A DNA stretch of 44,251 bases from Candidatus Poribacteria bacterium (lineage in GTDB: Bacteria; Poribacteria; WGA-4E; WGA-3G): contig JAAXHD010000126.1 of NCBI GenBank assembly GCA_012271015.1, positions 8,922 to 53,172 of the forward strand. The letters run 5' to 3'. This document shows, one piece after another, positions 26,508 to 43,758 of the stretch. The notes under the pieces were generated by a model. The model saw only the letters and a list, made by a program, of their open reading frames with translations, ran no database searches and was not told the DNA's origin. A program made the translations under genes and the position numbers. Each line of letters opens with the position of its first letter. Position 1 is the first letter of the stretch.

Positions 26508-27332
26508 ATGCGTCGGGTTATATTTTTTACGATATTGATAGCACTACTTACTGTGCCAACTCTTCTTGTGAATGCTGCGGACATTGAGGATGGGCTTTGG
26601 CTGTATCTACCGCTGAACGAAGGGACAGGTGAATCCGTCGTCGACCACGGACCCCACGCCTTCGATACAGAACTCAGTAAAGCCGCACCAAAATCGGTTG
26701 ATGCCAAGCACGACGATCTGGGAAAAGCGTTGGAATTTGATGGCAAGTCGACCTACGTCAAAATTGACATGGAAGCTCAGAAGAAAGACATCGATTCTCA
26801 CTTTGGTAAGACAGGCATCACGATCTGTTCATGGGTAAAACCCTTAAAAGTTGGGACCGATGGACACGGACAAACTCGTCAGCCTATTGTCATGAAAGGT
26901 GCCGGTGGACAGTGGGAGTTCGCGCTTTATGTCTACGATGACTTCGGTGCAGGCATGTCTGTCTGGACGTGTCCGGGTTCAGGGGTTTCAGAGCCACACA
27001 CTGCTGGCACCGCGCCACAAGGCAAGTGGATTCACCAATGTGGCACATTTTTGTTGAAGGAAGGGGTACGCGTTTACGTGGACGGTGACAAAAATCCAGT
27101 CGCGGAAGCAGCGGATGGGGGCAACGGTCCCTGTGAGACAGGCACGCGTCCCGTATTCATCGCACACCGTGAAGATGGACAGTGGTTAAATGCCGTTATC
27201 GCTGAGGTCTTTATATGGGATCGGGTGATTAGTGTTGACGAGATGAATCTTGCTATGAACACGATTGGAGGCTTGGCAGTTCAACCCGGAGGGAAACTGT
27301 CAACCACCTGGGGCAATATAAAACGTCGATGA
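26508..27332 (+). CDS. Secreted LamG/concanavalin-like lectin domain protein with W-G-x-I-K-R tail
   Basis: Signal peptide MRRVIFFTILIALLTVPTLL to about residue 23, then a LamG (concanavalin A-like) jelly-roll: LYLPLNEGTGESVVDHGPHA near 33, LEFDGKSTYVKI near 77, ITICSWVKP near 105, VRVYVDGDKNPVAEA near 184 and AVIAEVFIWDRVISVDEM near 229. Such domains bind carbohydrate or protein outside the cell. The last residues read GGKLSTTWGNIKRR, matching the ends of the two propeller proteins at 34.4 and 37.2 kb. It is monocistronic and closes with a strong terminator. Confidence 0.88.
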   Translation: MRRVIFFTILIALLTVPTLLVNAADIEDGLWLYLPLNEGTGESVVDHGPHAFDTELSKAAPKSVDAKHDDLGKALEFDGKSTYVKIDMEAQKKDIDSHFGKTGITICSWVKPLKVGTDGHGQTRQPIVMKGAGGQWEFALYVYDDFGAGMSVWTCPGSGVSEPHTAGTAPQGKWIHQCGTFLLKEGVRVYVDGDKNPVAEAADGGNGPCETGTRPVFIAHREDGQWLNAVIAEVFIWDRVISVDEMNLAMNTIGGLAVQPGGKLSTTWGNIKRR

Positions 27333-30424: not shown

Positions 30425-32134
30425 TTGCTCGATTTCCCAAGAATGTTGCACCCACTTTACCTCTTTGAGGAGGCAGGTGTGTCGTACGCCGCAGACCTTG
30501 AGAAAGCACGGGTCGTCGAACTTTCTCCCGTGATGAGAGACATCCTCAAACTCGCCGAAACACAGACAAACGCTGCGATCGTCGAAACGCTGCGGACTTC
30601 TTATGAAGCCGACGACATCTCCGAAGCGTTTGAGAGATTCGCGGAACTTGAGAGAGAGGGTTTGCTGTTCAATCGCGGGGAAGACTTGCAGGAGCAACTC
30701 ACGACAGAAAGTAAATGGCGGAAACTGCTTGTGGTGCTCCCCGGCATCACTGCGGATTCACTCTTTGATATTGAAATGTTGTCGGCTGGCACCAACATGG
30801 CACTCTCCTATATGGTTCAGCATCTCACGAGGTATGCGGATTTGCATTTTGCGAGGTCTCGGAACCGGAAGATCACAGATAGCGTGTATGAAATCGACAT
30901 CGGTATTGAGGACCTGATACGGCTGCGGTCAAAAATCGGCGAAACGTATTACGGCATCCTGACCTTACACTTGGAGCAGGAGCGGTGGTTGCTTCCGCTT
31001 TACCGATACCCAGAGTTCCCACCGATCCTCGTTCAGAGTCATGCGCCCCGCGGACACGGCGGGCAAGCAATGAATTCCATTCTGCGCCATTACGCTGCCA
31101 TGCGGAAGTGTGATGGGTTCACGGCACCCTCAGATTACGTCCGTGAGTTCTATACCGACTACGTCTGGGATCCGAGTTTCTTTAATACATTGCCCAACGG
31201 TGTAGATTCGGCGTTATTTCGACCGATGGATAAAGCGGCGAAACGTGAAATTGCGAAAAGGGTCGGCGATGATCGGATTGAGGGAGTGCCGACCGTTGGG
31301 TATCTCTCGCGTGTGCAATCTGAGAAAGGCGCATCCGTTTATGTGAAGTTAGCCGAACTGAATCCGCATCTGATTTTTTTGATAGCGGGTCCGAACATGG
31401 GACGGTATGCGTCCCGGAAACTCCCGGACAACCTCGTCTATGTCGGCTTCCATCCGCGCGAGAAACTCCCGCTCATCTATAATGCCTTCGATGTGTACTG
31501 TTTCCTCTCAATGTCGGGTGAAGAGACGTTCGGGTTGACGGTGCTTGAGGCAATGGCGTGCGGGGTGCCGCCGGTCGTCCCGAATTTCGATGGTGTTCCA
31601 TCGGTTGTCGGGGATGCTGGGTTGATTGCGGATGCCGAGAATTTCGACCAAGACATCGCAACACTCGTGAGTTATCCATCCCCGATAGACTTTTCCCGGA
31701 AGATCAACCTGCTATTGAACAACGATGAATTGCGGGAAACGCTTTCCGAGAAAGCGAGGGAACGGGCGGTCTCCTTCACGTGGGATAAGACAGCGTACCG
31801 CATCGTCCAGTTGTTTGAGGAACTTCACCGGAAAAAGAAACTGATTAATCCGAATAGACTCTTAAACGTGTTCGTCCCGGCACAACCCTTAGAAGAAAGC
31901 CCACAAGAACCGACGTACAAATCGTTTGTGCTGAGTATGAACGAACATTACGAGCGGTGTCTCATACGAGATGCGGTGTATCCACTGCGCATTGAGAACG
32001 GATTGGCACTCAGCATCTTAAAAGAGCATACACCCAGAGAAGCGGAAGCGATTCTTGCCGAATGGGTGCCTGATGAGACGGAAGCAAGAGCAATTCTCAA
32101 AAGGGTTCGCGGTCTTATTGATGGAACTGCTTGA
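30425..32134 (+). CDS. Glycosyltransferase with N-terminal PqqD/RRE-like domain (GT1)
   Basis: Residues about 7-85 (HPLYLFEEAGVSYAADLEKA, then E-L-S-P-V-M-R-D-I-L-K-L and ERFAELEREGLLF) have the strand and winged-helix pattern of PqqD-like RiPP recognition elements, as at the N-termini of SPASM peptide maturases. A GT-B, GT4-like catalytic region follows, with the donor-site VGYLSRVQSEKG (K301) and an intact E-x7-E (EETFGLTVLE, E367 and E375). The C-terminal 70 residues form a small helical tail (LKEHTPREAEAILAEW) shared with the next protein. I infer leader-peptide-guided glycosylation of the peptides downstream. The TTG start is supported by AAAGGAA 11 bases upstream; an ATG at 30443 is an alternative. 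569 residues. Confidence 0.82.
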   Translation: MLDFPRMLHPLYLFEEAGVSYAADLEKARVVELSPVMRDILKLAETQTNAAIVETLRTSYEADDISEAFERFAELEREGLLFNRGEDLQEQLTTESKWRKLLVVLPGITADSLFDIEMLSAGTNMALSYMVQHLTRYADLHFARSRNRKITDSVYEIDIGIEDLIRLRSKIGETYYGILTLHLEQERWLLPLYRYPEFPPILVQSHAPRGHGGQAMNSILRHYAAMRKCDGFTAPSDYVREFYTDYVWDPSFFNTLPNGVDSALFRPMDKAAKREIAKRVGDDRIEGVPTVGYLSRVQSEKGASVYVKLAELNPHLIFLIAGPNMGRYASRKLPDNLVYVGFHPREKLPLIYNAFDVYCFLSMSGEETFGLTVLEAMACGVPPVVPNFDGVPSVVGDAGLIADAENFDQDIATLVSYPSPIDFSRKINLLLNNDELRETLSEKARERAVSFTWDKTAYRIVQLFEELHRKKKLINPNRLLNVFVPAQPLEESPQEPTYKSFVLSMNEHYERCLIRDAVYPLRIENGLALSILKEHTPREAEAILAEWVPDETEARAILKRVRGLIDGTA

Positions 32135-32149
32135 AAGAAGGAGAAAACG

Positions 32150-33787
32150 ATGGTAACTCACACGCGTTACCGCTTAAAACAGCACCATAAATTTGAGCAG
32201 GACGATCGGAAATATGTCGCAGACCTCGAAACCGGCGACATCGTTCAGGTAAACGACGTGGAATGGGAAATTCTGTCGTGTTATGCGTCGCAGACGCGGT
32301 ACCAGATCGTAGAGGCACTCAAAAAAACATACAAATTGACTGTTATCTTTGACGGGATCGAGCGTTTGGAACAACTTGGAAGACAAGGAACCCTTCTGCA
32401 CCGAGTCGTTGAGGCAGTGGAACCAACGGCTGTGCATGGGCAGCAACGCGATCAGAAACCCAAAATATTGGTCCCGTTCCATTTTACGGGAGAGAAGTCG
32501 TCGTTGGATTACCTCACGAACCTCAACCGCTATCAGTTTTTGACTCACCTTGCGGCGTTCGCCGAGTTGGAAACGCTGTCGTTTCCTGAAGAAAAGAAGG
32601 AAGCCTTCCAGGATCTTGATGCGGTTCGGGTTCGGAACATAGACGTAGCGGCAGGGAATGCCTTGATGCCGCCGTGGTATGCGATAGATAACTATGAGGG
32701 TATCCTGCTGCTCTCGCAATTCTTGACGGACGATCTGTTATACTATCGAGTCCCCGATGTGCCGATTGTTCACTGCGTAGAGGCTATCCAGCAGATACCC
32801 CAACACGTTTTGCTGAAAACGCTTCTGACGCTCAGTGCGTTCCAAAGTCCAAAAGATACGCTGGTCGTCAAAGCCTCATGGATGAAGGAATGGCTTGCTG
32901 AATTAGGGATAATAGAAGACAACGTGCGCGTGATCCCGGATGGGATAGACGTTGTTGCGCCGATCGGTGATAAGGCATTGGCAAAACAGCACACCGCCGC
33001 TATCTTTGAGAAACCGATGTTTGCGAAGCAACCGGTTGTCGGGCTGATCTCTGGATTTGAACCCAATCGCGGTGCAGCATGGATTTCTGCGTTCGCCAGA
33101 GAGAACCCACATCTCGCTATTTTTGTCTACGACACAATGTTAGAGCAGCATTACCGATATCCGCCAGAGAATGTCGTCATTTTCAGTGCCGATGACGAAG
33201 AGACGCGATCGGTGCTGCCGATATTCTTCCAAGCGTTGGATCTCGTCTGTTTCCCTGCGATGCCGGGCACTCCGCTGTCGGTTGTCTTAGAGGCGATGAC
33301 GTATGGCGCGCCGTGTGTTGCGATAACGAAGTATGGGATGCCTCCGGAAGTTGCGGGGGCCGGTGCTGTTGTGGAGTCGGAAGGGAGTGATTTCGGTAAT
33401 TTCCGTGTCCCGATATCTGAGGTGTCGAACACGGTAAATCAGTGGTTGACCCCCTCTCATACACGCACCAAATGCGAGGACGTGGCAAAGCGTTTAGCGC
33501 AAAAATTCACTTGGGAAAAAGTAGCACAAGAAATCGTTCAGTGCCTTGAAGAAGGGCATCAGCAAAGCGTGAATGCTTTCAGAAATGAAATATATTTGTC
33601 TCCGTCGGTTTTTTGTCGTCGGTATGACGTGGAGACTGGAACCACCGGGTCCAGTGTGTATCGCCTGGGGACCAATAGATATGACTGCCTTAAAACCGCT
33701 TTGATAGAAATGTTAGCGGAACAGCATACACCTGCTGAACTCGAGGCAGTTTTCAAGCATTTCCAAGGGAAGGCTTCGCTTCCGTAA
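32150..33787 (+). CDS. Glycosyltransferase-like protein with N-terminal PqqD/RRE-like domain (GT2)
   Basis: 545 residues, 15 bases after GT1 with an AAGGAG site, so clearly one operon. Residues about 12-85 repeat the PqqD/RRE pattern (KFEQDDRKYVADLETGDIVQ, then V-E-W-E-I-L-S-C-Y). The GT-B body is recognisable (VVGLISGFEPNRGAAW, then LEAMTYGAPCVAIT), but two donor-site residues differ: the first Glu of E-x7-E is Gly373 (GTPLSVVLE) and the usual K-G Lys is Arg307. It may be a non-catalytic partner of GT1 or use another donor. The C-terminal tail (AEQHTPAELEAVFKHF) matches that of GT1. The last codons overlap the first arm of the structured leader of the peptide gene downstream. Confidence 0.8.
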   Translation: MVTHTRYRLKQHHKFEQDDRKYVADLETGDIVQVNDVEWEILSCYASQTRYQIVEALKKTYKLTVIFDGIERLEQLGRQGTLLHRVVEAVEPTAVHGQQRDQKPKILVPFHFTGEKSSLDYLTNLNRYQFLTHLAAFAELETLSFPEEKKEAFQDLDAVRVRNIDVAAGNALMPPWYAIDNYEGILLLSQFLTDDLLYYRVPDVPIVHCVEAIQQIPQHVLLKTLLTLSAFQSPKDTLVVKASWMKEWLAELGIIEDNVRVIPDGIDVVAPIGDKALAKQHTAAIFEKPMFAKQPVVGLISGFEPNRGAAWISAFARENPHLAIFVYDTMLEQHYRYPPENVVIFSADDEETRSVLPIFFQALDLVCFPAMPGTPLSVVLEAMTYGAPCVAITKYGMPPEVAGAGAVVESEGSDFGNFRVPISEVSNTVNQWLTPSHTRTKCEDVAKRLAQKFTWEKVAQEIVQCLEEGHQQSVNAFRNEIYLSPSVFCRRYDVETGTTGSSVYRLGTNRYDCLKTALIEMLAEQHTPAELEAVFKHFQGKASLP

Positions 33788-33880
33788 CGAATGAATTCGT
33801 CTTGGAATGGATTTCCCACCCACGGTTGGGAAGTCAATCTCGCCGGAACAGAAGCACCGGCAGAAAGGAGAAAAACCGAG
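33761..33880 (+). promoter_or_regulatory. Structured 5' leader of peptide 1 (copy L1)
   Basis: Stems seen: TTCCAAG (33761-33767) with CTTGGAA (33801-33807), enclosing hairpins GGAAG/CTTCC (33768-33783) and ACGAA/TTCGT (33787-33800), an ideal three-way junction. Then TTTCCC (33812-33817) with GGGAAG (33828-33833), and GCCGG (33842-33846) with CCGGC (33857-33861). An AAAGGAG ribosome-binding site follows immediately. The first arm lies in the end of the upstream coding region. Copies L2 and L3 keep the outer and downstream stems with different bases. Confidence 0.72.
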
Positions 33881-34123
33881 ATGAAAAAGAATCTCCGCGG
33901 TAAAATCCGCGAATTCGTCCAGTCTGAAGAAGGCAAAGTGGGTATCAAATCCCCACTGACACTCGGTGTCGCAACTGGTAGCGTCCTATTGGCACAAATG
34001 GTTGTGGGAACTCCACAGACAGTGGCATTTAAGGAGTGTTTGGGTCATGGTGATTGCATGTTTCCCGAACGTTGCCATAATGCTAATCCAGATTTAGGTA
34101 TCAAAGGCACTTGCCACGAATAG
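33881..34123 (+). CDS. Small cysteine-rich peptide 1, candidate RiPP precursor
   Basis: 80 residues. A basic helical start (MKKNLRGKIREFVQ) is followed by the conserved SEEGKVGIKSPLTLGVATGS and a hydrophobic stretch that could act as a signal peptide (VLLAQMVVGTPQTVAF). The tail after about residue 50 is different from its two relatives except for cysteines: C-x5-C-x5-C-x12-C. Start chosen at 33881, ten bases after AAAGGAG; an upstream in-frame ATG at 33791 lies within the structured leader. I infer a leader/core precursor acted on by the RRE-fused glycosyltransferases; a secreted disulfide-rich peptide without sugar is the alternative. Confidence 0.72.
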   Translation: MKKNLRGKIREFVQSEEGKVGIKSPLTLGVATGSVLLAQMVVGTPQTVAFKECLGHGDCMFPERCHNANPDLGIKGTCHE

Positions 34124-34133
34124 CACAATGCTT

Positions 34134-34168
34134 CGATGAGATTTCTTCAGTTTGAAGAAATTTCATCG
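34134..34168 (+). terminator. Hairpin after peptide 1
   Basis: CGATGAGATTTCTTC pairs along its whole 15 bases (one G-U) with GAAGAAATTTCATCG around a five-base loop, 10 bases after the peptide stop. There is no T-run, so it may stabilise or end the short transcript. Confidence 0.65.
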
Positions 34169-34409
34169 ACTCTCAAGTTAGGATGTGCTTGATAGTAGGT
34201 ATCCAATATCGGATGAGATTATTTTAAAAAATCGAGGTCTACCCCCATCTTTCAAAACAAGAAATAATAAAAATAAGGTGAACTTGGTATAGACGGATGG
34301 ACAAACTCATATTAGAAAGATTCAGAAAGGCTGAGGAAGTAAATTCGATAGTGAAACAGGTTTTGAAGTTATCGTTCAAATCGCAAGATGCTTTTAGGAG
34401 GTAAGTCGT

Positions 34410-35420
34410 ATGAGAATGATGAGAGTGTTAGTCTTTTTCTTACTTAAGGTGTTAGTTCTGAATACTAACGTTTACTCAGTTTTCGCTAAAGCACCTAACA
34501 CGCCGAAAATTCTGTTTACTTCTGTCCAAGATGTACAAGATAATAGGAATTACGGGGTCTACCTCATGAACCCAGATGGGTCCGAACAAGTAAACCTTAC
34601 ACATCATCACTCAAATGATCTGAGGGCCATCTGGTCACCGACAGGCGAGGAGATTCTTTTCGTTTCCGATCGCGATGGTGTTCGAGATCTCTACCTGATG
34701 GACGCAGATGGAAACAACGTCCGGCGCGTCTTCAAGAAAAAGATACATAGAGCATATCCGAGTTGGTCTCCCGACGGCAAACAGATTGCTTACACACAGG
34801 TGCGCTGGGACAATGACAGGTATCCTCTCTATATCGCATCGATTGGAGGACAGGAAGAGGAGGACCTTGGTGTGGATGGACTTTTTCCAGCATGGTCTCC
34901 TGATGGTAAGGAGATCGCTTGCTCTGTAAGGGGTCGCATTACATTTATCAACGTCCGAACAAGGAAACAAAAACGACTTCTACCTCGAAATGTAGCAGGT
35001 CATCAATTAAGAGCGTCTTGGTCAGCTATAGGCGACAAACTCGCCTTTTCTTGGAATAAGAATCCGCTACCGCCAGACCGTAAACCCCGTGATCCGTTTC
35101 CGCCCGGATGGGCTGATAAGGAGACAATCTACATTGTCAACCGTGATGGTACTGAGCTTCAGCAACTGGTGGATGAAGCGGGCCCCGAGGCATGGTTTCC
35201 TGAGTTATCGCCAAATGGCGATACAGTCCTTTATACGCAGGAAATTAAGGGTTTTATGCAGATCTTCAAAGTTGATGTGAATAACGGTATTCGGACACAG
35301 TTGACGCATATTGGTGTCCGAAATCTTGGAGGGGACTGGTTTGATCCGGCGTATGCGTTACCGGTTTCACTACAATCCCAGCTGCTCACGACAACATGGG
35401 GAGAACTAAAACGGGAGTAG
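34410..35420 (+). CDS. Secreted TolB/PD40-type beta-propeller protein 1
   Basis: 336 residues. An N-terminal hydrophobic signal (MRVLVFFLLKVLVLNTNVYS) is followed by PD40/TolB-like blades: YLMNPDGSEQVNLTH, then IWSPTGEEILFVSDRDG, LYLMDADGNNV, SWSPDGKQIAYTQ, AWSPDGKEIACS and ELSPNGDTVLYTQ. Such propellers bind peptides or proteins in the periplasm or outside. The end is GGDWFDPAYALPVSLQSQLL followed by TTTWGELKRE. AGGAGG eight bases before the ATG supports the start. A paralogue at 37198 also follows a small peptide gene, so peptide plus propeller looks like a repeated unit. Confidence 0.88.
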   Translation: MRMMRVLVFFLLKVLVLNTNVYSVFAKAPNTPKILFTSVQDVQDNRNYGVYLMNPDGSEQVNLTHHHSNDLRAIWSPTGEEILFVSDRDGVRDLYLMDADGNNVRRVFKKKIHRAYPSWSPDGKQIAYTQVRWDNDRYPLYIASIGGQEEEDLGVDGLFPAWSPDGKEIACSVRGRITFINVRTRKQKRLLPRNVAGHQLRASWSAIGDKLAFSWNKNPLPPDRKPRDPFPPGWADKETIYIVNRDGTELQQLVDEAGPEAWFPELSPNGDTVLYTQEIKGFMQIFKVDVNNGIRTQLTHIGVRNLGGDWFDPAYALPVSLQSQLLTTTWGELKRE

Positions 35421-35560
35421 GATCTATCGGAAACAGAGTCTTTCTCTATCTTGTGGATAAATTATTGTGAACGTAACATCAACCAACTCCGAGTCCAATA
35501 TGAAAAAAGGCAATTGATGAATGCACTACCCTAACAGGCGATGTAGAGGAGTCCGAATCC

Positions 35561-36570
35561 ATGCGTCAACTACTCACTGACTTTTATCAAGAGGCCGCCC
35601 ATTCCTCTGACCTTACACCTCTCTTTGCGGACCAATACTTAGAGCAAGATCATCAGGGTATGTCTCAGCGACGGCGTGTCAGCGGTGTCATCAGCAAGAA
35701 TACCTCCAGTGGTCAGCAACGCGGCACGCTTTTGCCTTTGAAACCCTTCTGAAAAAGGAACGCTACTTTGATGCTGGATGTGTCTCCTGCCATACCACTG
35801 GACTCGGTTATCCAACGGGGTTTCAGATAGGTGATCAGGATTCAACGCTCAAAGGCGTGCAGTGTGAAACGTGCCACGGTCCCGGCAAGCAGCACGTCGG
35901 CAACCCCAAAAAGAGCAACATCCGCAGTGCTGCGGATACATCGCTGTGTTTGGAATGCCACGACACGAAACACTCTCCCGGATTCAAAGATGTGGTCGCA
36001 CTGCATACCAAGGATGTTGATCACAGCCGATCACCGATGAACTTGGAGGAACTCTTGACCTCCCGCATCGCACGTGTTGGGAAGCCGACCTTGGAATTGT
36101 TTGTGATGAGCTATTGTCCTTTCGGTGTTCAGGCGGAAGAGAAGATTATTCCGATCGTGAAGGAGTTTGGTAACAAAATTGACTTCAAACTCCAATTCAT
36201 TGCAAAGGAAAAAGAAGCACCTTCACCACAGGATATAACGCCGTTTACGAGCCTGCACGGTTACCCCGAAGTGGCGGAAAACATCCGGCAGCTGTTAATA
36301 GCACGAGAATACCCTGATAAGTATCTGGACTATATTCTATGTCGGGGCAAGAAATTGGACAAGAGTTGGGAAAACTGTGCGGAGAAACTCGGTATTGATG
36401 TGGCGAAGATTCAGGAATTATTTGACAGTCCGGCAGCCGAGCAACTTTTCCGGGAAAACATTCAGCACGCCGCAGCACTAGGCATTCGAGCCTCCCCGAC
36501 AATTTTAGTCGATGGACATCAATTTCGGGCCAATCAACTCCTGCGTGCAAGTGGAACACCGTGCCAGTAA
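35561..36570 (+). pseudogene. Multiheme cytochrome c fused to thioredoxin-fold (DsbA-like) domain, frameshifted and 5'-truncated
   Basis: The frame from 35561 (and in-frame from 35504) reads M-R-Q-L-L-T-D-F-Y-Q-E-A-A then D-H-Q-G. Near 35655-35660 one base is missing and the sequence continues in another frame: Y-V-S-A-T-A-C-Q-R-C-H. Four CxxCH heme motifs follow (CQRCH 35677, CVSCH 35779, CETCH 35863, CLECH 35947), as in cytochrome c554-like proteins. A thioredoxin-fold domain comes next, with LELFVMSYCPFGVQAEEK and the cis-Pro segment RASPTILVDG. No export signal is left. From GTG at 35857 an open 237-codon frame remains, enough for the thioredoxin part. An intact form would handle electrons or thiols outside the cytoplasm, which would fit cysteine-rich peptides. 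Confidence 0.72.
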
Positions 36571-36654
36571 TTACAGTTCACAAATTGGATAAACACCGTT
36601 CAAACAACCAACAAGGATGATGAACCTTTTTTTAAAAAGCCATTAGAAAGCATG

Positions 36655-36775
36655 TCCAGGGGAAGGGCTTCACTCCCGTAGCGATAGTATTCGTCCTGGA
36701 GATGGGTCTCCCAACTGGAGTTGGAAATTCAATTTTGCTGGAACAGAAGCACCGGCAGAAAGGAGAAAAACCGAT
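36655..36775 (+). promoter_or_regulatory. Structured 5' leader of peptide 2 (copy L2)
   Basis: TCCAGG (36655-36660) pairs with CCTGGA (36695-36700); inside it GCGA (36681-36684) pairs with TCGT (36691-36694). The other inner hairpin is weaker here (GGG 36665-36667 with CCC 36675-36677). Downstream stems are CCAAC (36711-36715) with GTTGG (36720-36724) and GCTGG (36737-36741) with CCGGC (36752-36756). AAAGGAG follows. Overall DNA similarity to L1 is high, but the paired arms differ in a matched way. Confidence 0.68.
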
Positions 36776-37006
36776 AGGAAAAGCAACCTTCGCGATAAAA
36801 TCCGTGAATTCATTGCATCTGAGGAAGGCAAGGTAGGAGTCAAAGCACCACTGACGCTTGGTGTCGCCACGGGTAGTGTTTTGTTAGCAAACGCAATCGT
36901 TGGGGCAACACCTGCTGAGGCAGGATCACCATGCATGAGGGATAGAGATTGTGAATACGCACCCTTTAGGTGCTTAATAGAGCACGGCAGTTGTGAAACT
37001 AATTAA
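36776..37006 (+). pseudogene. Small cysteine-rich peptide 2, candidate RiPP precursor with lost start codon
   Basis: The frame is clearly homologous to peptide 1: R-K-S-N-L-R-D-K-I-R-E-F-I-A, then SEEGKVGVKAPLTLGVATGS and a hydrophobic stretch to A-E-A-G. The tail keeps four cysteines, C-x5-C-x6-C-x6-C, ending S-C-E-T-N. At the position of the ATG in peptide 1 the codon is AGG (36776-36778), and I find no ATG, GTG or TTG in frame between the previous stop and there. The rest of the frame is undamaged, so start loss is recent, or a rare start codon is used. Confidence 0.65.
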
Positions 37007-37067
37007 CATTGGAGTACGAATCTGAGTAAGTACTTTAATGTTCTAAAGAAAATCTCAGGAGCAGCAA

Positions 37068-37102
37068 CTGGGTGTGACTTGTTTTGCGACACGCACACCC
37101 AG
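37068..37102 (+). terminator. Hairpin after peptide 2
   Basis: CTGGGTGTG (37068-37076) and CACACCCAG (37094-37102) form a perfect nine-base stem 62 bases after the peptide stop. No T-run follows. Confidence 0.55.
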
Positions 37103-37197
37103 TCCGTTCAAGAGTAGACTTCTTCTAACATATCAGTGTTACACCTTCAAACCTCTCAAGATATTAGCACCTTTATCCAGGTAAGGAGGAGTTATGA

Positions 37198-38169
37198 ATG
37201 AGACGTTCAACATTAGTTATCCTGTGCCTTTTCAGTTTGGGACTGTTAGAAATGAACGTGTGTGTCGTTTTTCCCAAGGCACCCAGCACAGCAAAAATTA
37301 TGTTTGGAACCTACCGTGGTGAAAATCGAGAACTTTATCTCATGAATCCAGATGGCAGTGAGCAAGTCAATATTACCAATAACCGCGCAGACGATATCAG
37401 TGGTAGGTGGTCCCCGACGGGAGAACAGATTCTTTTCGCTTCTGACCGCGACCGGGGGGAGGGTTGGGATCTGTATCTGATGGATACCGATGGTAAAAAT
37501 GTCCAACCCGTCTTTGAGAAATCAGAAGATAGGCGACATCCTGAGTGGTCGCCCGATGGAAAACAGATCGCTTACATGCGCACCGTAGGGGGTGTGGGAT
37601 ACGTCTACATCGCCACAAGTGATGGAAAAAATGAAGAACGATTCGCGATTGGTGGTTCTCCTGCTTGGTCCCCAGAAGGCAACGAACTCGCTTTTGTCGT
37701 TAGAGTCGCACCCGACCGCCTGAACATCTATCTTCTCAACGTCCGCACACGAAAACAGAAACATTTTTTCCCACCCGATGACATCAGCACAGCGAGAGAG
37801 CCTGCTTGGTCCCCTAATGGAACCAAACTTGCGTTTATGTGGCATCAAAAACGACCGCAAGATGAAGGGGAAATCTATACATTGAATCGCGATGGAACGG
37901 GGCTCCAAGAATTTGTAAATCATCCTGAAGAAGGGGTTACAGCACCAGTGTGGGATCCGGACGGAAAGGCACTAATTTATTCACAAGAGGTCGGAAAGTG
38001 GGAAATACACGTTTTCAAAATTATGTTGGCGGATGGTCCTTCGGAACGACTGACAGATGTTGGTCTCTGGAATAATCCTGGTGATTGGTTTGATCCGGCG
38101 TATGCTTTGCCCGTGTCTCCACAACTGCAGTTGCTCCCTACGGTGTGGGGTGAACTGAAACGGAAGTAG
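37198..38169 (+). CDS. Secreted TolB/PD40-type beta-propeller protein 2
   Basis: 323 residues and paralogous to the protein at 34410 along its whole length. Signal peptide MRRSTLVILCLFSLGLLEMN, then blades LYLMNPDGSEQVNITN, RWSPTGEQILFASDRDR, EWSPDGKQIAYMR, AWSPEGNELAFVV, AWSPNGTKLAFMW and VWDPDGKALIYSQE. It shares LLNVRTRKQK and the ending GDWFDPAYALPVSPQLQLL with PTVWGELKRK. The ATG follows AAGGAGGA. Periplasmic or extracellular peptide binding is the most I would infer. Confidence 0.88.
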   Translation: MRRSTLVILCLFSLGLLEMNVCVVFPKAPSTAKIMFGTYRGENRELYLMNPDGSEQVNITNNRADDISGRWSPTGEQILFASDRDRGEGWDLYLMDTDGKNVQPVFEKSEDRRHPEWSPDGKQIAYMRTVGGVGYVYIATSDGKNEERFAIGGSPAWSPEGNELAFVVRVAPDRLNIYLLNVRTRKQKHFFPPDDISTAREPAWSPNGTKLAFMWHQKRPQDEGEIYTLNRDGTGLQEFVNHPEEGVTAPVWDPDGKALIYSQEVGKWEIHVFKIMLADGPSERLTDVGLWNNPGDWFDPAYALPVSPQLQLLPTVWGELKRK

Positions 38170-38230
38170 TATTCATAAAAATAATTTTATTTATCCTTGT
38201 GTAATAGCTTATTGAATCAGTTTTTAAACA

Positions 38231-38353
38231 TTTTCAGCGGGATAGTTCCACCCCATACGCGATACGGTTCGTGCTGAAAATGGGTTTCCTGACAATGCTG
38301 AGGAAACGAATCCCGCTGGCGTGGAGCACCGGCAGAAAGGAGAAACTCTATAA
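38231..38353 (+). promoter_or_regulatory. Structured 5' leader of peptide 3 (copy L3)
   Basis: TTTTCAGC (38231-38238) pairs perfectly with GCTGAAAA (38273-38280) around GGG/CCC (38239-38241 with 38251-38253) and GCGA (38259-38262) with T-C-G-T (38269-38272). GTTTCCT (38284-38290) pairs perfectly with AGGAAAC (38301-38307), and GCTGG (38315-38319) with CCGGC (38329-38333). AAAGGAG follows. A competing perfect pairing exists in this copy only: AGCGGGAT (38236-38243) with ATCCCGCT (38310-38317), which would break both the first and the last stem. Confidence 0.72.
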
Positions 38354-38617
38354 ATGAAAAATAACTCGGTTCGCAGGAGAATTCGTCATTTCCTCAAATC
38401 CGAAGAAGGCCGCGTCGGCATTAAATCCCCGTTGACTTTGGGTGTAGCAAGCGCAAGTGTGTTGCCCGCTCAGGCAATCGTCACGCCTCCCGTTCAGGCA
38501 CATTTAACGTGTATTCCTGGGACGGATGACTGTGCAGAAGATGAGTATTGCTCAGTTTGGTGTGACGAGTGGAGTGGATCAACCTGTATAGGGGAATGGC
38601 ACAGTCAATGCGAATGA
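38354..38617 (+). CDS. Small cysteine-rich peptide 3, candidate RiPP precursor
   Basis: 87 residues. The leader M-K-N-N-S-V-R-R-R-I-R-H-F-L-K is followed by SEEGRVGIKSPLTLGVASAS and a hydrophobic stretch to P-P-V-Q-A-H. The tail has six cysteines (C-x6-C-x5-C-x3-C-x7-C-x7-C) and is rich in Asp, Glu and Trp, with a Dickkopf-like D-D-C-x5-C spacing; Ser and Thr occur near the cysteines. Start chosen at 38354, 11 bases after AAAGGAG. Same inference as peptide 1: leader plus variable core. No propeller gene follows this copy. Confidence 0.72.
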   Translation: MKNNSVRRRIRHFLKSEEGRVGIKSPLTLGVASASVLPAQAIVTPPVQAHLTCIPGTDDCAEDEYCSVWCDEWSGSTCIGEWHSQCE

Positions 38618-38666
38618 TTTTGATTCTTAATCAGGTTATCTAACGAATTATTAATGTATTAACAAT

Positions 38667-38679
38667 CCGCTTTTGGCGG
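38667..38679 (+). terminator. Short hairpin after peptide 3
   Basis: CCGC (38667-38670) pairs with GCGG (38676-38679) followed by TTTC. It is weak, but placed as expected for the end of the peptide transcript. Confidence 0.35.
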
Positions 38680-38695
38680 TTTCACTGTCTATAGG

Positions 38696-38757
38696 CATGG
38701 CGCTCCGGTGGAGAACTTCAAAGGAATTCCTATCAAGGACTCCAATGGGGTGCCATG
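38696..38757. repeat. Imperfect inverted repeat, MITE/REP-like
   Basis: CATGGCGCTCCGGTGGAG (38696-38713) and CTCCAATGGGGTGCCATG (38740-38757) are inverted copies with four mismatches, each flanked by TCTATA on the outside (38688, 38758). It lies directly before the damaged nucleotidyltransferase gene. Confidence 0.65.
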
Positions 38758-38793: not shown

Positions 38794-39111
38794 ATGCAAG
38801 CAATTATTCTATGCGGTGGGTTGCGGACGCGGTTGGGTGAAACTACGAAAATGCTCCCCGAGGATCCGAACCTTTTGTGAGAAATAATCAACCCGTTCTG
38901 CAGAGTATATCAATGTTGGAATGTATCTCTTCAATCAAAGGATTTCCGACGCATTTCCTACACAACAGGAGAGTTTCTCAATTGAGCGGACGTTTTCCCA
39001 AATGTCTATGATCTTTATACATTACAAGTCGATGCGGATTGGATTGACATTGGCGTTCCAGAGCCGCTGGCATATGCCCGAAAACACTTCCAAAATGGAG
39101 AATTTCAATGA
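38794..39111 (+). pseudogene. Sugar-1-phosphate nucleotidyltransferase remnant, internally deleted and frameshifted
   Basis: The 5' end is intact: an ATG then MQAIILCGGLRTRLGETTKM, the nucleotide-binding G-G-x-x-T-R-L motif of NTP-transferase enzymes such as mannose-1-phosphate guanylyltransferase. It stops at 38880. After a gap with F-V-R-N-N-Q-P-V, C-terminal pieces follow: N-V-G-M-Y-L-F-N-Q-R-I near 38913-38945, then in another frame N-V-Y-D-L-Y-T-L-Q-V-D-A-D-W-I-D-I-G, ending at 39111 and overlapping the mutase start. Only about 106 codons remain of a usual 230 or more. Originally it probably worked with the mutase to make an NDP-sugar. Confidence 0.75.
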
Positions 39112-40827: not shown

Positions 40828-43758
40828 ATGGTAGAAGATGATGTTCAACTCATCGATAAGATTTTGGCGGGCGACGATGAAGCCTTCACAGCATTAGTCC
40901 GAAAACATCAGAAGAGTGTTCACGCGCTGGCTTGGCGGAAGATAGGTGATTTTCATTCTGCTGAAGAGATTACGCAGGATGTCTTTCTTCGCGTCTACAA
41001 GCACCTCCCAAAACTAAAGGATCCCCGTCAGTTTTCTGGGTGGCTTTACGTCATTACAAATCGGTTGTGTAAGACCTGGCTCCGAAAGAACAAATCCTTG
41101 ATGGAATCGCTGGAGGATGTCCCCATGGCAGAAATAGAGAAAACGTTCTATGAGCACTATGTATCGGTAGAACAGGAACAGGACGCTCAGACATATCGTT
41201 TTGAGCTCGTCAGGAAACTTTTGGAAAAACTACCTGAGAGTGAACGCACCGTCATAACGCTCTACTATCTCGGCGAAATGACAGCAAAGGAGATCGGCAA
41301 GTTTTTGGGTGTGTCAGTGAACACGGTTACGAGTCGACTACAGCGGGCGCGAGAGCGTTTAAAACAGGACGAGGAACTCTTAGTGCGAGAGTTGCTCGGG
41401 AGTGTCCAGTTATCTGAGAGTCTAACACAAAATATCGTGCGGAGAGTTGCGGATATGAAACCCCTGTCTCCTTCAACGGGGAAGCCGTTACTACCGTGGG
41501 CAGCCTTCGGTGCGGCTGCTGTTTTGGTGGCACTGTTCCTGTTAGGTGTGAGCAACCAATACCTTGTACGGTTTCAAAAACCCTATAGTTTCAAGGCACA
41601 GTCCGAACCGACGGTTGAAATTATTGACGCGCCTGTTGTTCTCAATATTGATGCAAAACCGGCTGTGCGAAATCAGGCAGGACGTGCTGCCACGACCAGT
41701 AGCAACACGGGTGCTGGTGCACAGGTCTCCGAATCGGATGTAGCGTCCCACGCACAGGATGGGGCAATCAGACTTTCAGCGTCGCAGTGGGCACAGACAG
41801 CAGGACCGCAAGGCGGTGCTGTTTTTGATATATTCGCGACAGCTGAAGGGACGATTTACACGCTTTCACCGACAGGTATCTACAGGCTGAGACCGGATGC
41901 CTCGGCATGGACGCTCATAAACAGCAGCGTACCCATTGAAGGTTCCTGGATGCCCATGGCGGCACATGAGGAGATGCTCTATATCGTCTCCAAAGATATG
42001 GTATTTGCCTCAACCGACGATGGTGAGACATGGGAAGCCCTCTGCCCCCGTCCAGAGGGGCATGCCATTGAGTTAGTAATCGTAAATGAAGCACAAGGGA
42101 GCGATTCCCGCGAGCATCCTACGATGTATCTTGCCCTCCGAGATAAAGGCGTATTCCGCTCTACGGATGTGTATGGTCAGTGGGCTCTCCTTGACGATGG
42201 ATGGATGGGGGGAACGATTTCTGCGGTGGCTGTGGTCGGAGACACGGTGTTTGCTGGCACGGACAATGGTCTCTACCGATTGAATTCAGGCACGTGGGAA
42301 CGCTTACTTGCGGATGTGTCCGGATCCATCTATTCCTTAGCCGTTGATGAAGGGAGTCTCTATGTTGGAACCGGTCCTGATTTTCTTGCCCTACAACAGA
42401 TTGGATCAGAGCCAAAGGAGGTCATGCAGATGATGTATGACGACGATTTAAGTTCAAACAAGGCGTTTCACTCAAGGGACTTGGGAGCGTCATGGACTGA
42501 AATAACGCCGACAAGTGGATCGCGTCCTGTAATAGCACCGTCCGGCATGGATTTGTTGGTTGCCGGTAAAACGATCTTAGCACAAGCCTTCACCCGATTC
42601 CAGTCAAAAAACGGTGGACAGACCTGGACCGACCTTGGGTTTGACAGGGATTCGTTCGTACTCAGTGGTTTTGCATCTGTAGCAGGGAATGAAAATACAT
42701 TTTACAAAGCAGGGAAATTGGGCGTTTATCGAACAACCGACGGAGGTGAATCGTGGCATCTGTTCATGGATGGAATGGTGGGAACCCGGGTACTGGATTT
42801 GGTCACGTTCAATAACAGACTCTACGCACATACCGGTGATGCCCTTGTCCAATCAAGAGACGATGGTGGGTCGTGGAAAACCGTTCGGATTGACCTTGTT
42901 TTTTCGCATTCACGGTTAACGGTTGCCGGAAATATTCTTTATGCAATTTCACCTGAAATCGGTATTTCGGGTATTTTCCGTTTATCCGCTGATGGCGATG
43001 AATTCGTCCCGGTTCAAGGGGTGCCAATGTTTGAAATGGATTTCCCATCTATTAAGCTATTGGCGGATAGTGAAGACACTGGACAGGCACATTCACCTCA
43101 AGGGCATGAAAGCGACGATAACTTGGTAGAGACATTGCGTCATAGAGAACATATGAAAACTGGGGCATTTGCAGTCAGTGATGAAACGTTTTACGCCGAA
43201 TATAAGCGGCAACTTTTCAAATGGCAACCCGGTGATGCAGCGTGGACAGGCACGGGATTGGTAGACACCGACACGCACCCTGATGAAACATTGGATAAAA
43301 CGTTTAAGTTAGCGGTTTCAGGGGACACCGTCTACGTCGGGAAGCGGGATGGCAAGTTGTTCCAATCACTGGATGGAGGGAACAGCTGGAAGGACATCAC
43401 GTCGTCCCTTCCGTTCCCGTTTACTGCTTTCACGGAGATCGTCTTTGCAGGATCAATGGTTTACGTCGCGACAGACGCAGGGGTCTTAGCCTCACAGACG
43501 GGTTCACACTGGCGCGTGATCACCGACGAAGTGACTATAGACAGATTCGCTGTGGACGGTGCCACGCTTTATGGTGCGGGGGATATGGGGGTCTATTTCC
43601 TGGATGCGCATGGCGAATGGAAGCAAATTTCTCCAAGTGTTCCCGGTGAGGTGCTCTCACTTGTCGTTCACCGCGACAGACTGTATGTGGCAACCGAGCG
43701 GCGCGGGATGTTCCACATCTCACTTCGGGAAGAGGGGGATACCGTGTCTCGTAAATAG
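40828..43758 (+). CDS. ECF sigma factor fused to a membrane-anchored beta-propeller
   Basis: 976 residues in one frame. Sigma region 2 is about 18-90 (DEAFTALVRKHQKSVHALAW, then EEITQDVFLRVYKHLPKL). Region 4 is about 130-185 (LPESERTVITLYYLGEMTAK, then SVNTVTSRLQRARERL). After a linker resembling the cytoplasmic part of anti-sigma proteins comes one membrane helix near 222-243 (WAAFGAAAVLVALFLLGV). From about 320 to the end runs a beta-propeller of BNR/Ycf48-like blades with S-x-D-x-G-x-x-W (TDDGETWEAL, KNGGQTWTDL, TDGGESWHLF, RDDGGSWKTV, LDGGNSWKDI). I infer that the propeller senses something outside and controls the sigma part, by proteolysis or conformation. ATGGAGAATTCTC precedes the ATG. 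Confidence 0.9.
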   Translation: MVEDDVQLIDKILAGDDEAFTALVRKHQKSVHALAWRKIGDFHSAEEITQDVFLRVYKHLPKLKDPRQFSGWLYVITNRLCKTWLRKNKSLMESLEDVPMAEIEKTFYEHYVSVEQEQDAQTYRFELVRKLLEKLPESERTVITLYYLGEMTAKEIGKFLGVSVNTVTSRLQRARERLKQDEELLVRELLGSVQLSESLTQNIVRRVADMKPLSPSTGKPLLPWAAFGAAAVLVALFLLGVSNQYLVRFQKPYSFKAQSEPTVEIIDAPVVLNIDAKPAVRNQAGRAATTSSNTGAGAQVSESDVASHAQDGAIRLSASQWAQTAGPQGGAVFDIFATAEGTIYTLSPTGIYRLRPDASAWTLINSSVPIEGSWMPMAAHEEMLYIVSKDMVFASTDDGETWEALCPRPEGHAIELVIVNEAQGSDSREHPTMYLALRDKGVFRSTDVYGQWALLDDGWMGGTISAVAVVGDTVFAGTDNGLYRLNSGTWERLLADVSGSIYSLAVDEGSLYVGTGPDFLALQQIGSEPKEVMQMMYDDDLSSNKAFHSRDLGASWTEITPTSGSRPVIAPSGMDLLVAGKTILAQAFTRFQSKNGGQTWTDLGFDRDSFVLSGFASVAGNENTFYKAGKLGVYRTTDGGESWHLFMDGMVGTRVLDLVTFNNRLYAHTGDALVQSRDDGGSWKTVRIDLVFSHSRLTVAGNILYAISPEIGISGIFRLSADGDEFVPVQGVPMFEMDFPSIKLLADSEDTGQAHSPQGHESDDNLVETLRHREHMKTGAFAVSDETFYAEYKRQLFKWQPGDAAWTGTGLVDTDTHPDETLDKTFKLAVSGDTVYVGKRDGKLFQSLDGGNSWKDITSSLPFPFTAFTEIVFAGSMVYVATDAGVLASQTGSHWRVITDEVTIDRFAVDGATLYGAGDMGVYFLDAHGEWKQISPSVPGEVLSLVVHRDRLYVATERRGMFHISLREEGDTVSRK

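What the first reader, a model, noticed from the sequence alone, without database searches (positions are those of the whole stretch)
30425..38617. Candidate new RiPP system: RRE-fused glycosyltransferases with three cysteine-rich precursor-like peptides
Seen: two adjacent GT-B proteins (30425-32134, 32150-33787) both carry an N-terminal region of about 80 residues with the PqqD/RRE pattern and share a C-terminal helical tail. Just downstream are three small proteins with one conserved leader and divergent 4-6 Cys tails. Established: PqqD-like RREs bind leader peptides in RiPP pathways, and glycocins are RiPPs glycosylated on Cys or Ser. Inference: the peptides are substrates and are glycosylated, with disulfides possibly formed by a thioredoxin-fold partner. 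There is no radical SAM, LanM or YcaO gene here, and I know of no described class with RRE fused to a GT4-like enzyme plus this leader.
Basis: partly seen in the sequence, partly recalled or inferred. Interest (0 to 1): 0.9.

Follow-up and report, generated by a model that had tools for sequence, protein, structure and literature searches.

The report
Leader-guided glycosyltransferase pair with peptide substrates
Sponge-associated Poribacteria carry repeated gene cassettes in which one intact-looking and one apparently dead sugar-transferring enzyme, each with a peptide-grabbing domain, sit next to small, mostly cysteine-rich peptides with a shared leader, which looks like an undescribed way of making modified peptides.

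Summary
The finding is real and wider than described. The window is from a Candidatus Poribacteria MAG. Both glycosyltransferases carry a true RRE: profile match to the SCIFF maturase CteB (E 1.1e-12), AF2 βββααα fold, Foldseek ranks 1-8 all known RREs. New here: (1) GT1 and GT2 are not two enzymes; 41 of 41 GT1 keep donor-binding R/K and EX7E, 42 of 42 GT2 lost R, K and the first E: an enzyme/pseudoenzyme pair like GtfA-GtfB. (2) 39 of 41 GT1 genes have a leader peptide within 8 kb. (3) The leader occurs in 40 of 84 Poribacteria genomes, including all 33 with GT1, but 7 have it without a GT1 match. (4) Leaders also track an archaeal-type A24 peptidase and a cytochrome-DsbA fusion, even in four GT-less loci. 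(5) A covarying RNA element without Rfam match precedes most type-A precursors. (6) Six of 88 cores lack Cys. One of the window's three peptides lacks a start codon. Best reading: leader-guided glycosylation by an RRE-GT/pseudo-GT pair, then export and disulfides. Glycosylation is not shown. New variant of a known kind; interest 0.74.

The parts
30425..32134 (+). GT1: RRE (about residues 9-82) plus GT4 glycosyltransferase with intact motifs
   Evidence: PF00534 1.8e-25; R, K and EX7E kept as in 41 of 41 GT1; AF2 of residues 1-105 pLDDT 87.3, strands then helices as in RREs
32150..33787 (+). GT2: RRE plus GT4-like pseudo-glycosyltransferase
   Evidence: N-terminus hits NF040492 at 2.1e-05; R, K and first E of EX7E lost in 42 of 42 GT2; AF2 GT-B with RRE, pLDDT 77.6
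33746..33889 (+). structured RNA element upstream of peptide 1 (overlaps its first codons)
   Evidence: model R1 hit G000:C129:42667-42810, E 2.9e-25
33881..34123 (+). precursor peptide 1 (80 aa, 4 Cys in the core)
34410..35420 (+). TolB-like beta-propeller, probably secreted, with C-terminal TTWGELK tag
   Evidence: PD40 1e-18; tag
35531..36570 (+). truncated C-terminal part of UshA-like/multihaem cytochrome/DsbA fusion, pieces in two frames
   Evidence: tblastn pieces
36639..36784 (+). structured RNA element upstream of peptide 2
   Evidence: R1 hit G000:C129:45560-45705, E 9.4e-24
36785..37006 (+). precursor peptide 2 (4 Cys in the core), no standard in-frame start codon
37198..38169 (+). 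second TolB-like beta-propeller with the WGELK tag
38217..38362 (+). structured RNA element upstream of peptide 3 (overlaps its first codons)
   Evidence: R1 hit G000:C129:47138-47283, E 1.3e-24
38354..38617 (+). precursor peptide 3 (87 aa, 6 Cys in the core)
38794..39108 (+). remnant of a sugar-1-phosphate nucleotidyltransferase (pieces in two frames)
   Evidence: tblastn with NTase of L121 and L145
39108..40586 (+). phosphomannomutase/phosphoglucomutase, probable sugar-donor supply
   Evidence: NF011943 CpsG 3.1e-107, under its curated cut-off; gene family in 19 of 44 stretches
40828..43758 (+). sigma-factor-like protein with a long C-terminal part, candidate cassette regulator
   Evidence: gene family in 24 of 44 stretches; sigma-like N-terminus read by eye, not searched

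Best explanation
A RiPP-type peptide glycosylation cassette. Steps: (a) precursors are made with a shared leader of about 50 residues and a variable core. (b) The SCIFF-type RREs of GT1 and GT2 bind the N-terminal half of the leader. (c) GT1, a GT4 enzyme, transfers a sugar, perhaps from GDP-mannose or a GDP-heptose, to the core in the cytoplasm, while GT2, a pseudo-glycosyltransferase, holds or presents the acceptor as GtfB does for GtfA. (d) The hydrophobic second half of the leader sends the product through the membrane by a Sec-type route and is cut at the conserved AxA. The A24 peptidase, where present, cuts after the conserved Gly of the leader. (e) The DsbA-like cytochrome fusion forms disulfides in the Cys-rich cores. 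Shown by computation: RRE identity, intact/pseudo pair, leader family and its linkage to these genes, AxA, RNA element. Inferred: binding, glycosylation, sugar, site, order of cleavages, disulfides, product function.
For: RRE. Intact versus pseudo GT: 41 of 41 keep R, K and both E; 42 of 42 lack R, K and the first E. GT2 still models as GT-B. GT1 with leader within 8 kb: 39 of 41; GT2 directly after it: 37 of 41. All 33 GT1 genomes have the leader, 44 of 84 have neither. One leader with very variable cores. 20 of 35 leaders weakly match the N-terminal half of another precursor family, HxsA3, though the window's own peptides do not. AxA 71 of 90 against a mean of 35.6 in shuffles. A24 in 38 of 44 stretches, DsbA fusion in 30, both A24 aspartates in 33 of 33 of 340 aa or more. 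Sugar-supply genes.
Against: Seven of 40 leader-bearing genomes lack a GT1 match, four with GT-less loci that keep A24 and DsbA fusion, so the peptide can exist without the GTs. Leader and RRE divergence are mostly not separable from descent of the whole GT, and the leader's N-half follows the GT domain of GT2 (partial r 0.198) rather than its RRE (-0.001). No residue type is present in every core, so no glycosylation site can be named. The window's own cassette has no A24 gene and a truncated DsbA fusion. No biochemical data exist.
Confidence: 0.55

Rival explanations
1. The peptides are prepilin-like or secreted disulfide-rich surface proteins whose main partners are the A24 peptidase and the DsbA fusion. 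The RRE-GT pair is an add-on that glycosylates this surface protein: a pilin-type glycoprotein system, not a RiPP natural product.
For: Archaeal-type A24 with Arc_PepC region (0.00011 and 0.008 in two), catalytic Asp 33 of 33, next to the peptides also in four GT-less loci. Leader: F at -7 in 83 of 89, K/R at +5 in 88 of 90, with E -3 and G -1 (by selection), the same register as the Flp prepilin consensus that I recall (not from a call).
Against: No leader hits Flp, TadE or class III Pfam models (0 of 35), PF04964 has no match in the window's genome, +5 is K/R and not the pilin E (recalled), and an AxA site follows the hydrophobic stretch. RREs are not known to me from pilin glycosylation.
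Confidence: 0.2
2. The RRE-GT pair acts on another acceptor (the tagged propellers, a glycolipid or polysaccharide); the RREs only tether or regulate, and the peptides are neighbours or signals.
For: GT-less peptide loci; propellers are common in the cassettes (72 genes in 27 of 44 stretches); cores share no acceptor residue.
Against: All 33 GT1 genomes have leaders; both proteins of the pair have leader-type RREs; the three type-B cassettes show no propeller of that family but keep leader peptides and a GT pair.
Confidence: 0.17
3. The leader is an ordinary Sec signal peptide with a conserved front, and the RRE resemblance is a winged-helix domain of other use.
For: Site ends 30 to 32 residues after the Gly in 76 of 90.
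Against: The most conserved residues lie in the first 20 positions, before the hydrophobic stretch; the top structure matches of the domain are RREs, several solved with leader peptides.
Confidence: 0.08

Closest known systems
SCIFF peptide maturase CteB RRE (5WGG/5WHY)
   Same: RRE sequence and fold; that these entries are CteB is recalled, the calls name a radical SAM protein of sactipeptide thioether formation
   Different: fused to GT4 domains, not to a radical SAM enzyme; different cores
GtfA-GtfB of the accessory Sec system (PMC12809243, passages seen)
   Same: GT4 enzyme plus catalytically inactive partner that binds the acceptor; cargo glycosylated for secretion
   Different: here both subunits carry RREs and the candidate substrates are short peptides with a leader; accessory Sec genes were not searched for
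Glycocins (recalled: SunS/EntS, GT2-type enzymes)
   Same: small Cys-rich peptides next to glycosyltransferases
   Different: here GT4 fold with RREs, AxA leader rather than double-Gly, and some cores without Cys
Bufferins/MNIO RiPPs (PMC12452194, abstract and passages seen)
   Same: Cys-containing precursors whose leader is also a Sec-type signal
   Different: RRE-bearing modifying proteins are GTs; no MNIO or DUF2063 among the 20 proteins scanned
RRE-glycosyltransferase fusions listed by RRE-Finder (PMC7470986; PMC12710340; passages seen)
   Same: RRE fused to a glycosyltransferase
   Different: the passages seen describe no GT/pseudo-GT pair, leader or Poribacteria; the 2025 paper names PF00535, here it is PF00534; supplementary Fig. 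S7 of 2020 was not seen and could hold relatives
His-Xaa-Ser repeat protein HxsA3 (NF038309)
   Same: weak leader similarity in 20 of 35 leaders, over its first half
   Different: far under the cut-off (best shown 22.9 of 65 bits); window peptides 1 and 3 do not match; cores differ

Membership tests
RRE-dependent RiPP system | RRE domain in a modifying protein | tested here: met
RRE-dependent RiPP system | precursor genes with conserved leader and variable core next to the enzyme | tested here: met
RRE-dependent RiPP system | RRE binds the leader | not testable with these tools
   co-divergence test mixed
RRE-dependent RiPP system | core is modified | not testable with these tools
   no data
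Glycocin | Cys (or Ser/Thr) glycosylated by a SunS-type GT2 enzyme, double-Gly leader (recalled) | tested here: not met
   enzyme is GT4; leader ends AxA; six of 88 cores lack Cys
GtfA-GtfB-like pair | GT4 enzyme plus partner without catalytic residues | tested here: met
   41 of 41 against 0 of 42
GtfA-GtfB-like pair | serine-rich repeat substrate | tested here: not met
   cores of 5-65 aa, 30 of 88 without any Ser
GtfA-GtfB-like pair | accessory Sec genes (SecA2, SecY2) | not tested
   no search made
Flp/type IV prepilin | Pfam pilin signal match and E at +5 (recalled) | tested here: not met
   0 of 35; K/R at +5 in 88 of 90
Flp/type IV prepilin | A24 prepilin peptidase partner | tested here: met
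   38 of 44 stretches; but not in the window itself
SCIFF/ranthipeptide | radical SAM SPASM maturase | tested here: not met
   RRE is fused to GT4; no radical SAM in the 20 proteins scanned
Bufferin | MNIO (DUF692) enzyme with DUF2063 partner | tested here: inconclusive
   none in the 20 proteins scanned; whole loci not scanned

The most novel reading that the evidence does not exclude
A new RiPP class found so far only in Poribacteria: an RRE-bearing glycosyltransferase and an RRE-bearing pseudo-glycosyltransferase together glycosylate arrays of diversified mini-protein and short hydrophobic cores. One leader serves as RRE handle, prepilin-type A24 substrate and Sec signal, and precursor synthesis is set by its own RNA element.
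Probability: 0.4. Interest if true: 0.87.

Novelty: new variant of a known kind. Interest (0 to 1): 0.74.

Why it matters
It would give leader-guided peptide glycosylation by a GT4/pseudo-GT pair, a chemistry that could be aimed at chosen peptides by changing cores behind one leader. It would also explain a family of diversified Cys-rich peptides (up to 21 leader matches in one genome) in uncultured bacteria, and add a candidate RNA element and a candidate leader peptidase to RiPP biology. The pair makes the question 'why keep a dead glycosyltransferase' directly testable.

Tried and rejected
Rfam search of the window at gathering cut-off, and of 33600-38700 at E<=5: no match. Pilin signal models against leaders: none; Flp_Fap in the own genome: none. 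I first thought a start codon at 36702 could serve peptide 2; it is in another frame. Mantel-type test on 37 GT1-GT2-leader sets, all six partial tests: leader N-half against RRE given GT domain 0.149 (p 0.047) for GT1 and -0.001 (p 0.506) for GT2; against GT domain given RRE 0.092 (p 0.154) for GT1 and 0.198 (p 0.001) for GT2; hydrophobic half against RRE 0.367 (p 0.001) for GT1 and 0.123 (p 0.069) for GT2: not decisive. Glycosylation site by universal residue: none. DUF4342 hits of 8 of 35 leaders and unc-13 hits of the RRE profile taken as chance. Literature: nine searches listed no paper whose title or abstract start describes this cassette; many subscription papers are not held, and supplementary files were not read. 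PMC10885120 (review of RiPP leader proteases) was queried for prepilin, signal peptidase, aspartic, aspartyl and A24: no occurrence.

Genome tallies of leader against GT1 and A24 were made by hand from the tables.
Full report
Where it is. The window is G000:C129:8922-53172 of a 4.94 Mb MAG, 83.64% complete. A scan of genome contigs with the first 270 residues of GT1 gave 36 loci, every one titled Poribacteria; one peptide pattern was used and the scan reaches only fairly close relatives, so absence elsewhere is not shown. Records of the window's own genome may be left out of that list, so the name rests on its relatives.

The RRE is real. hmmscan of 38 N-termini (GT1 and GT2): PqqD in 25 of 38 (E<=1, best 0.00092), NF040492, a radical SAM/SPASM maturase model, in 37 of 38 (E<=0.1, best 1.6e-08); the window's own GT1 scored 0.0042 and 0.0034 there, under both curated cut-offs. 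A profile of these N-termini against the PDB gave 5wgg/5why (CteB, a SCIFF maturase; name recalled) at E 1.1e-12 over positions 9-94; the next hit was at 0.0021 (unc-13, taken as chance). AlphaFold2 of GT1 residues 1-105: pLDDT 87.3, strands 11-16, 19-24, 29-33 and helices 35-43, 49-56, 62-77. Foldseek ranks 1-8: 5why/5wgg (TM 0.62-0.65 by query length), a lasso B1 protein and TbiB1, each of the latter solved with a leader peptide; ThcOx, McbBCD and PbtF follow. Only two of the hits have E<=0.001. GT2 in full: RRE plus GT-B, pLDDT 77.6, first hits MshA. GT1 was not modelled in full.

One enzyme, one pseudoenzyme. Of 83 distinct proteins of 500 aa or more, 41 are GT1-type and 42 GT2-type (sorted by a two-residue gap in EX7E). 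In GT1, Arg and Lys of the donor-binding motif and both Glu of EX7E are kept in 41 of 41. In GT2 the Arg (Gly 38, Pro 3, Glu 1), the Lys and the first Glu are gone in 42 of 42; the second Glu stays in 36. Motif roles are recalled knowledge of GT4 enzymes. The arrangement recalls GtfA-GtfB (PMC12809243, passages).

The precursors. An iterated leader profile finds 99 ORFs, 94 distinct, in the window and 43 further stretches. These stretches were chosen because they hold or neighbour GT1 or leader hits, and some overlap, so their numbers describe the cassette, not the genome. Leaders are alike and cores differ: of 88 cores 30 have 4 Cys, 30 have 6, 9 have 8, and 6 have none. The Cys-free cores (L130, L131, L145) are short and mostly end in VAI, VAT or similar; they sit beside their own GT pair. 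Relative to Gly (-1): F(-7) 83 of 89, V(+2) 86 of 90, K or R (+5) 88 of 90. AxA occurs in 71 of 90 (small-x-A in 88) against a mean of 35.6 and a maximum of 47 in 200 shuffles; the chosen site ends 30 to 32 residues after the Gly in 76 of 90.

Linkage. Of 41 full-length GT1, 39 have a same-strand leader within 8 kb; the two others, L020 and L135, lie at a contig end and on a 3.3 kb contig; 37 of 41 are followed by GT2. Tallied by hand over 84 genomes of the phylum: leader and GT1 33, leader only 7 (G033, G038, G042, G044, G045, G050, G059), GT1 only 0, neither 44. G038 has a GT fragment at a contig end (L149). Leader and A24: both 35, leader only 5, A24 only 3, neither 41. These genomes are related, so the counts are not independent trials. 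In G033, G042, G044 and G045 the locus is peptide, propeller, A24 (58-65% identical to that of L119), the full-length UshA/cytochrome/DsbA fusion (67-72%) and a sigma-like gene, with no RRE-GT match at 1e-5. In G050 and G059 a peptide lies near propellers with no GT on the stretch read.

Other members of the cassette (44 stretches): GT cluster in 43 (it includes a few GTs without RRE), A24-like in 38, UshA/cytochrome/DsbA fusion in 30, propellers in 27, sigma-like family in 24, methyltransferase in 21, phosphomannomutase in 19, nucleotidyltransferase in 9. Two A24 proteins scanned match Peptidase_A24 (9.6e-08 and 0.0015, the second under the cut-off) and Arc_PepC, and both catalytic Asp are present in 33 of 33. 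The sugar genes resemble mannose-1-phosphate guanylyltransferase or HddC (1.1e-39, 5.3e-38), CpsG (3.1e-107) and HddA (1.4e-37), all under the curated cut-offs; GDP-mannose or a GDP-heptose as donor is inference. The window's own copy is worn: nucleotidyltransferase in fragments, DsbA fusion without its front, no A24 or methyltransferase match between 33701 and 39200, and peptide 2 without a start. A24 genes exist elsewhere in the genome (C427, C63).

RNA element. Forty-seven upstream sequences of type-A precursors share three helices; 97 cells change on both sides with pairing kept, against 34.1 in shuffles and at most 38 with slid partners (I chose the structure on this same alignment). Rfam has no match in the window. 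The model finds 132 hits in 29 of 84 genomes (stricter filters); 124 of 132 lie directly before one of the 136 leader hits compared, and 125 of those 136 have it. Eleven lack it, among them the four GT-less leaders, and also the leader on C427, which has GTs.

Mechanism and limits. The protein pair, the leader family and their linkage are computed facts; binding, sugar transfer, cleavage order and disulfides are inferred. The seven leader-only genomes are the strongest evidence against the GTs being the whole story: the core unit may be leader, A24 and DsbA fusion, with glycosylation added. Leader-RRE co-divergence is mixed.

Known ground. RRE-Finder listed RRE-glycosyltransferase fusions in 2020 without a pathway in the passages I saw (PMC7470986); the 2025 work names PF00535 (PMC12710340). 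Precursors with Sec signals are called rare among bacterial RiPPs (PMC12452194). Nine searches of the held library listed no paper that appears, from title and abstract start, to treat this cassette.

Noticed in passing
window 33746-33889, 36639-36784, 38217-38362; model R1: Covarying RNA element without Rfam match in front of type-A precursor genes; its 5' strand can also pair with the Shine-Dalgarno region, so it may control translation.
   Followed up: partly
window 26508-27332, 34410-35420, 37198-38169; L018 5901-7004: C-terminal tag W-G/A-x-L/I/V/M-K, often TTWGxLK, on propellers, kelch and lectin-like proteins (54 of 65 propellers, 7 of 7 and 5 of 6 of two other families) and on 0 of 96 members of the GT cluster: a possible Poribacteria sorting signal.
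   Followed up: partly
L130 7605-8078, L131 12384-12859, L145 936-1336: Type-B precursors with the same leader but Cys-free short cores, beside a GT pair; L130 also has a transglutaminase-like protein and L145 an ABC-2 membrane protein.
   Followed up: partly
window 40828-43758; gene family in 24 of 44 stretches: Sigma-factor-like protein with a long C-terminal part next to the cassettes, perhaps its regulator (sigma call by eye).
   Followed up: no
L204 (G082:C1:2404000-2423000): Leader peptide with propellers and small remnants of GT1, methyltransferase and nucleotidyltransferase genes: a cassette in decay.
   Followed up: partly
L138, L139, L018: HddA-like GHMP kinase beside one cassette type, hinting at a manno-heptose donor.
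   Followed up: partly
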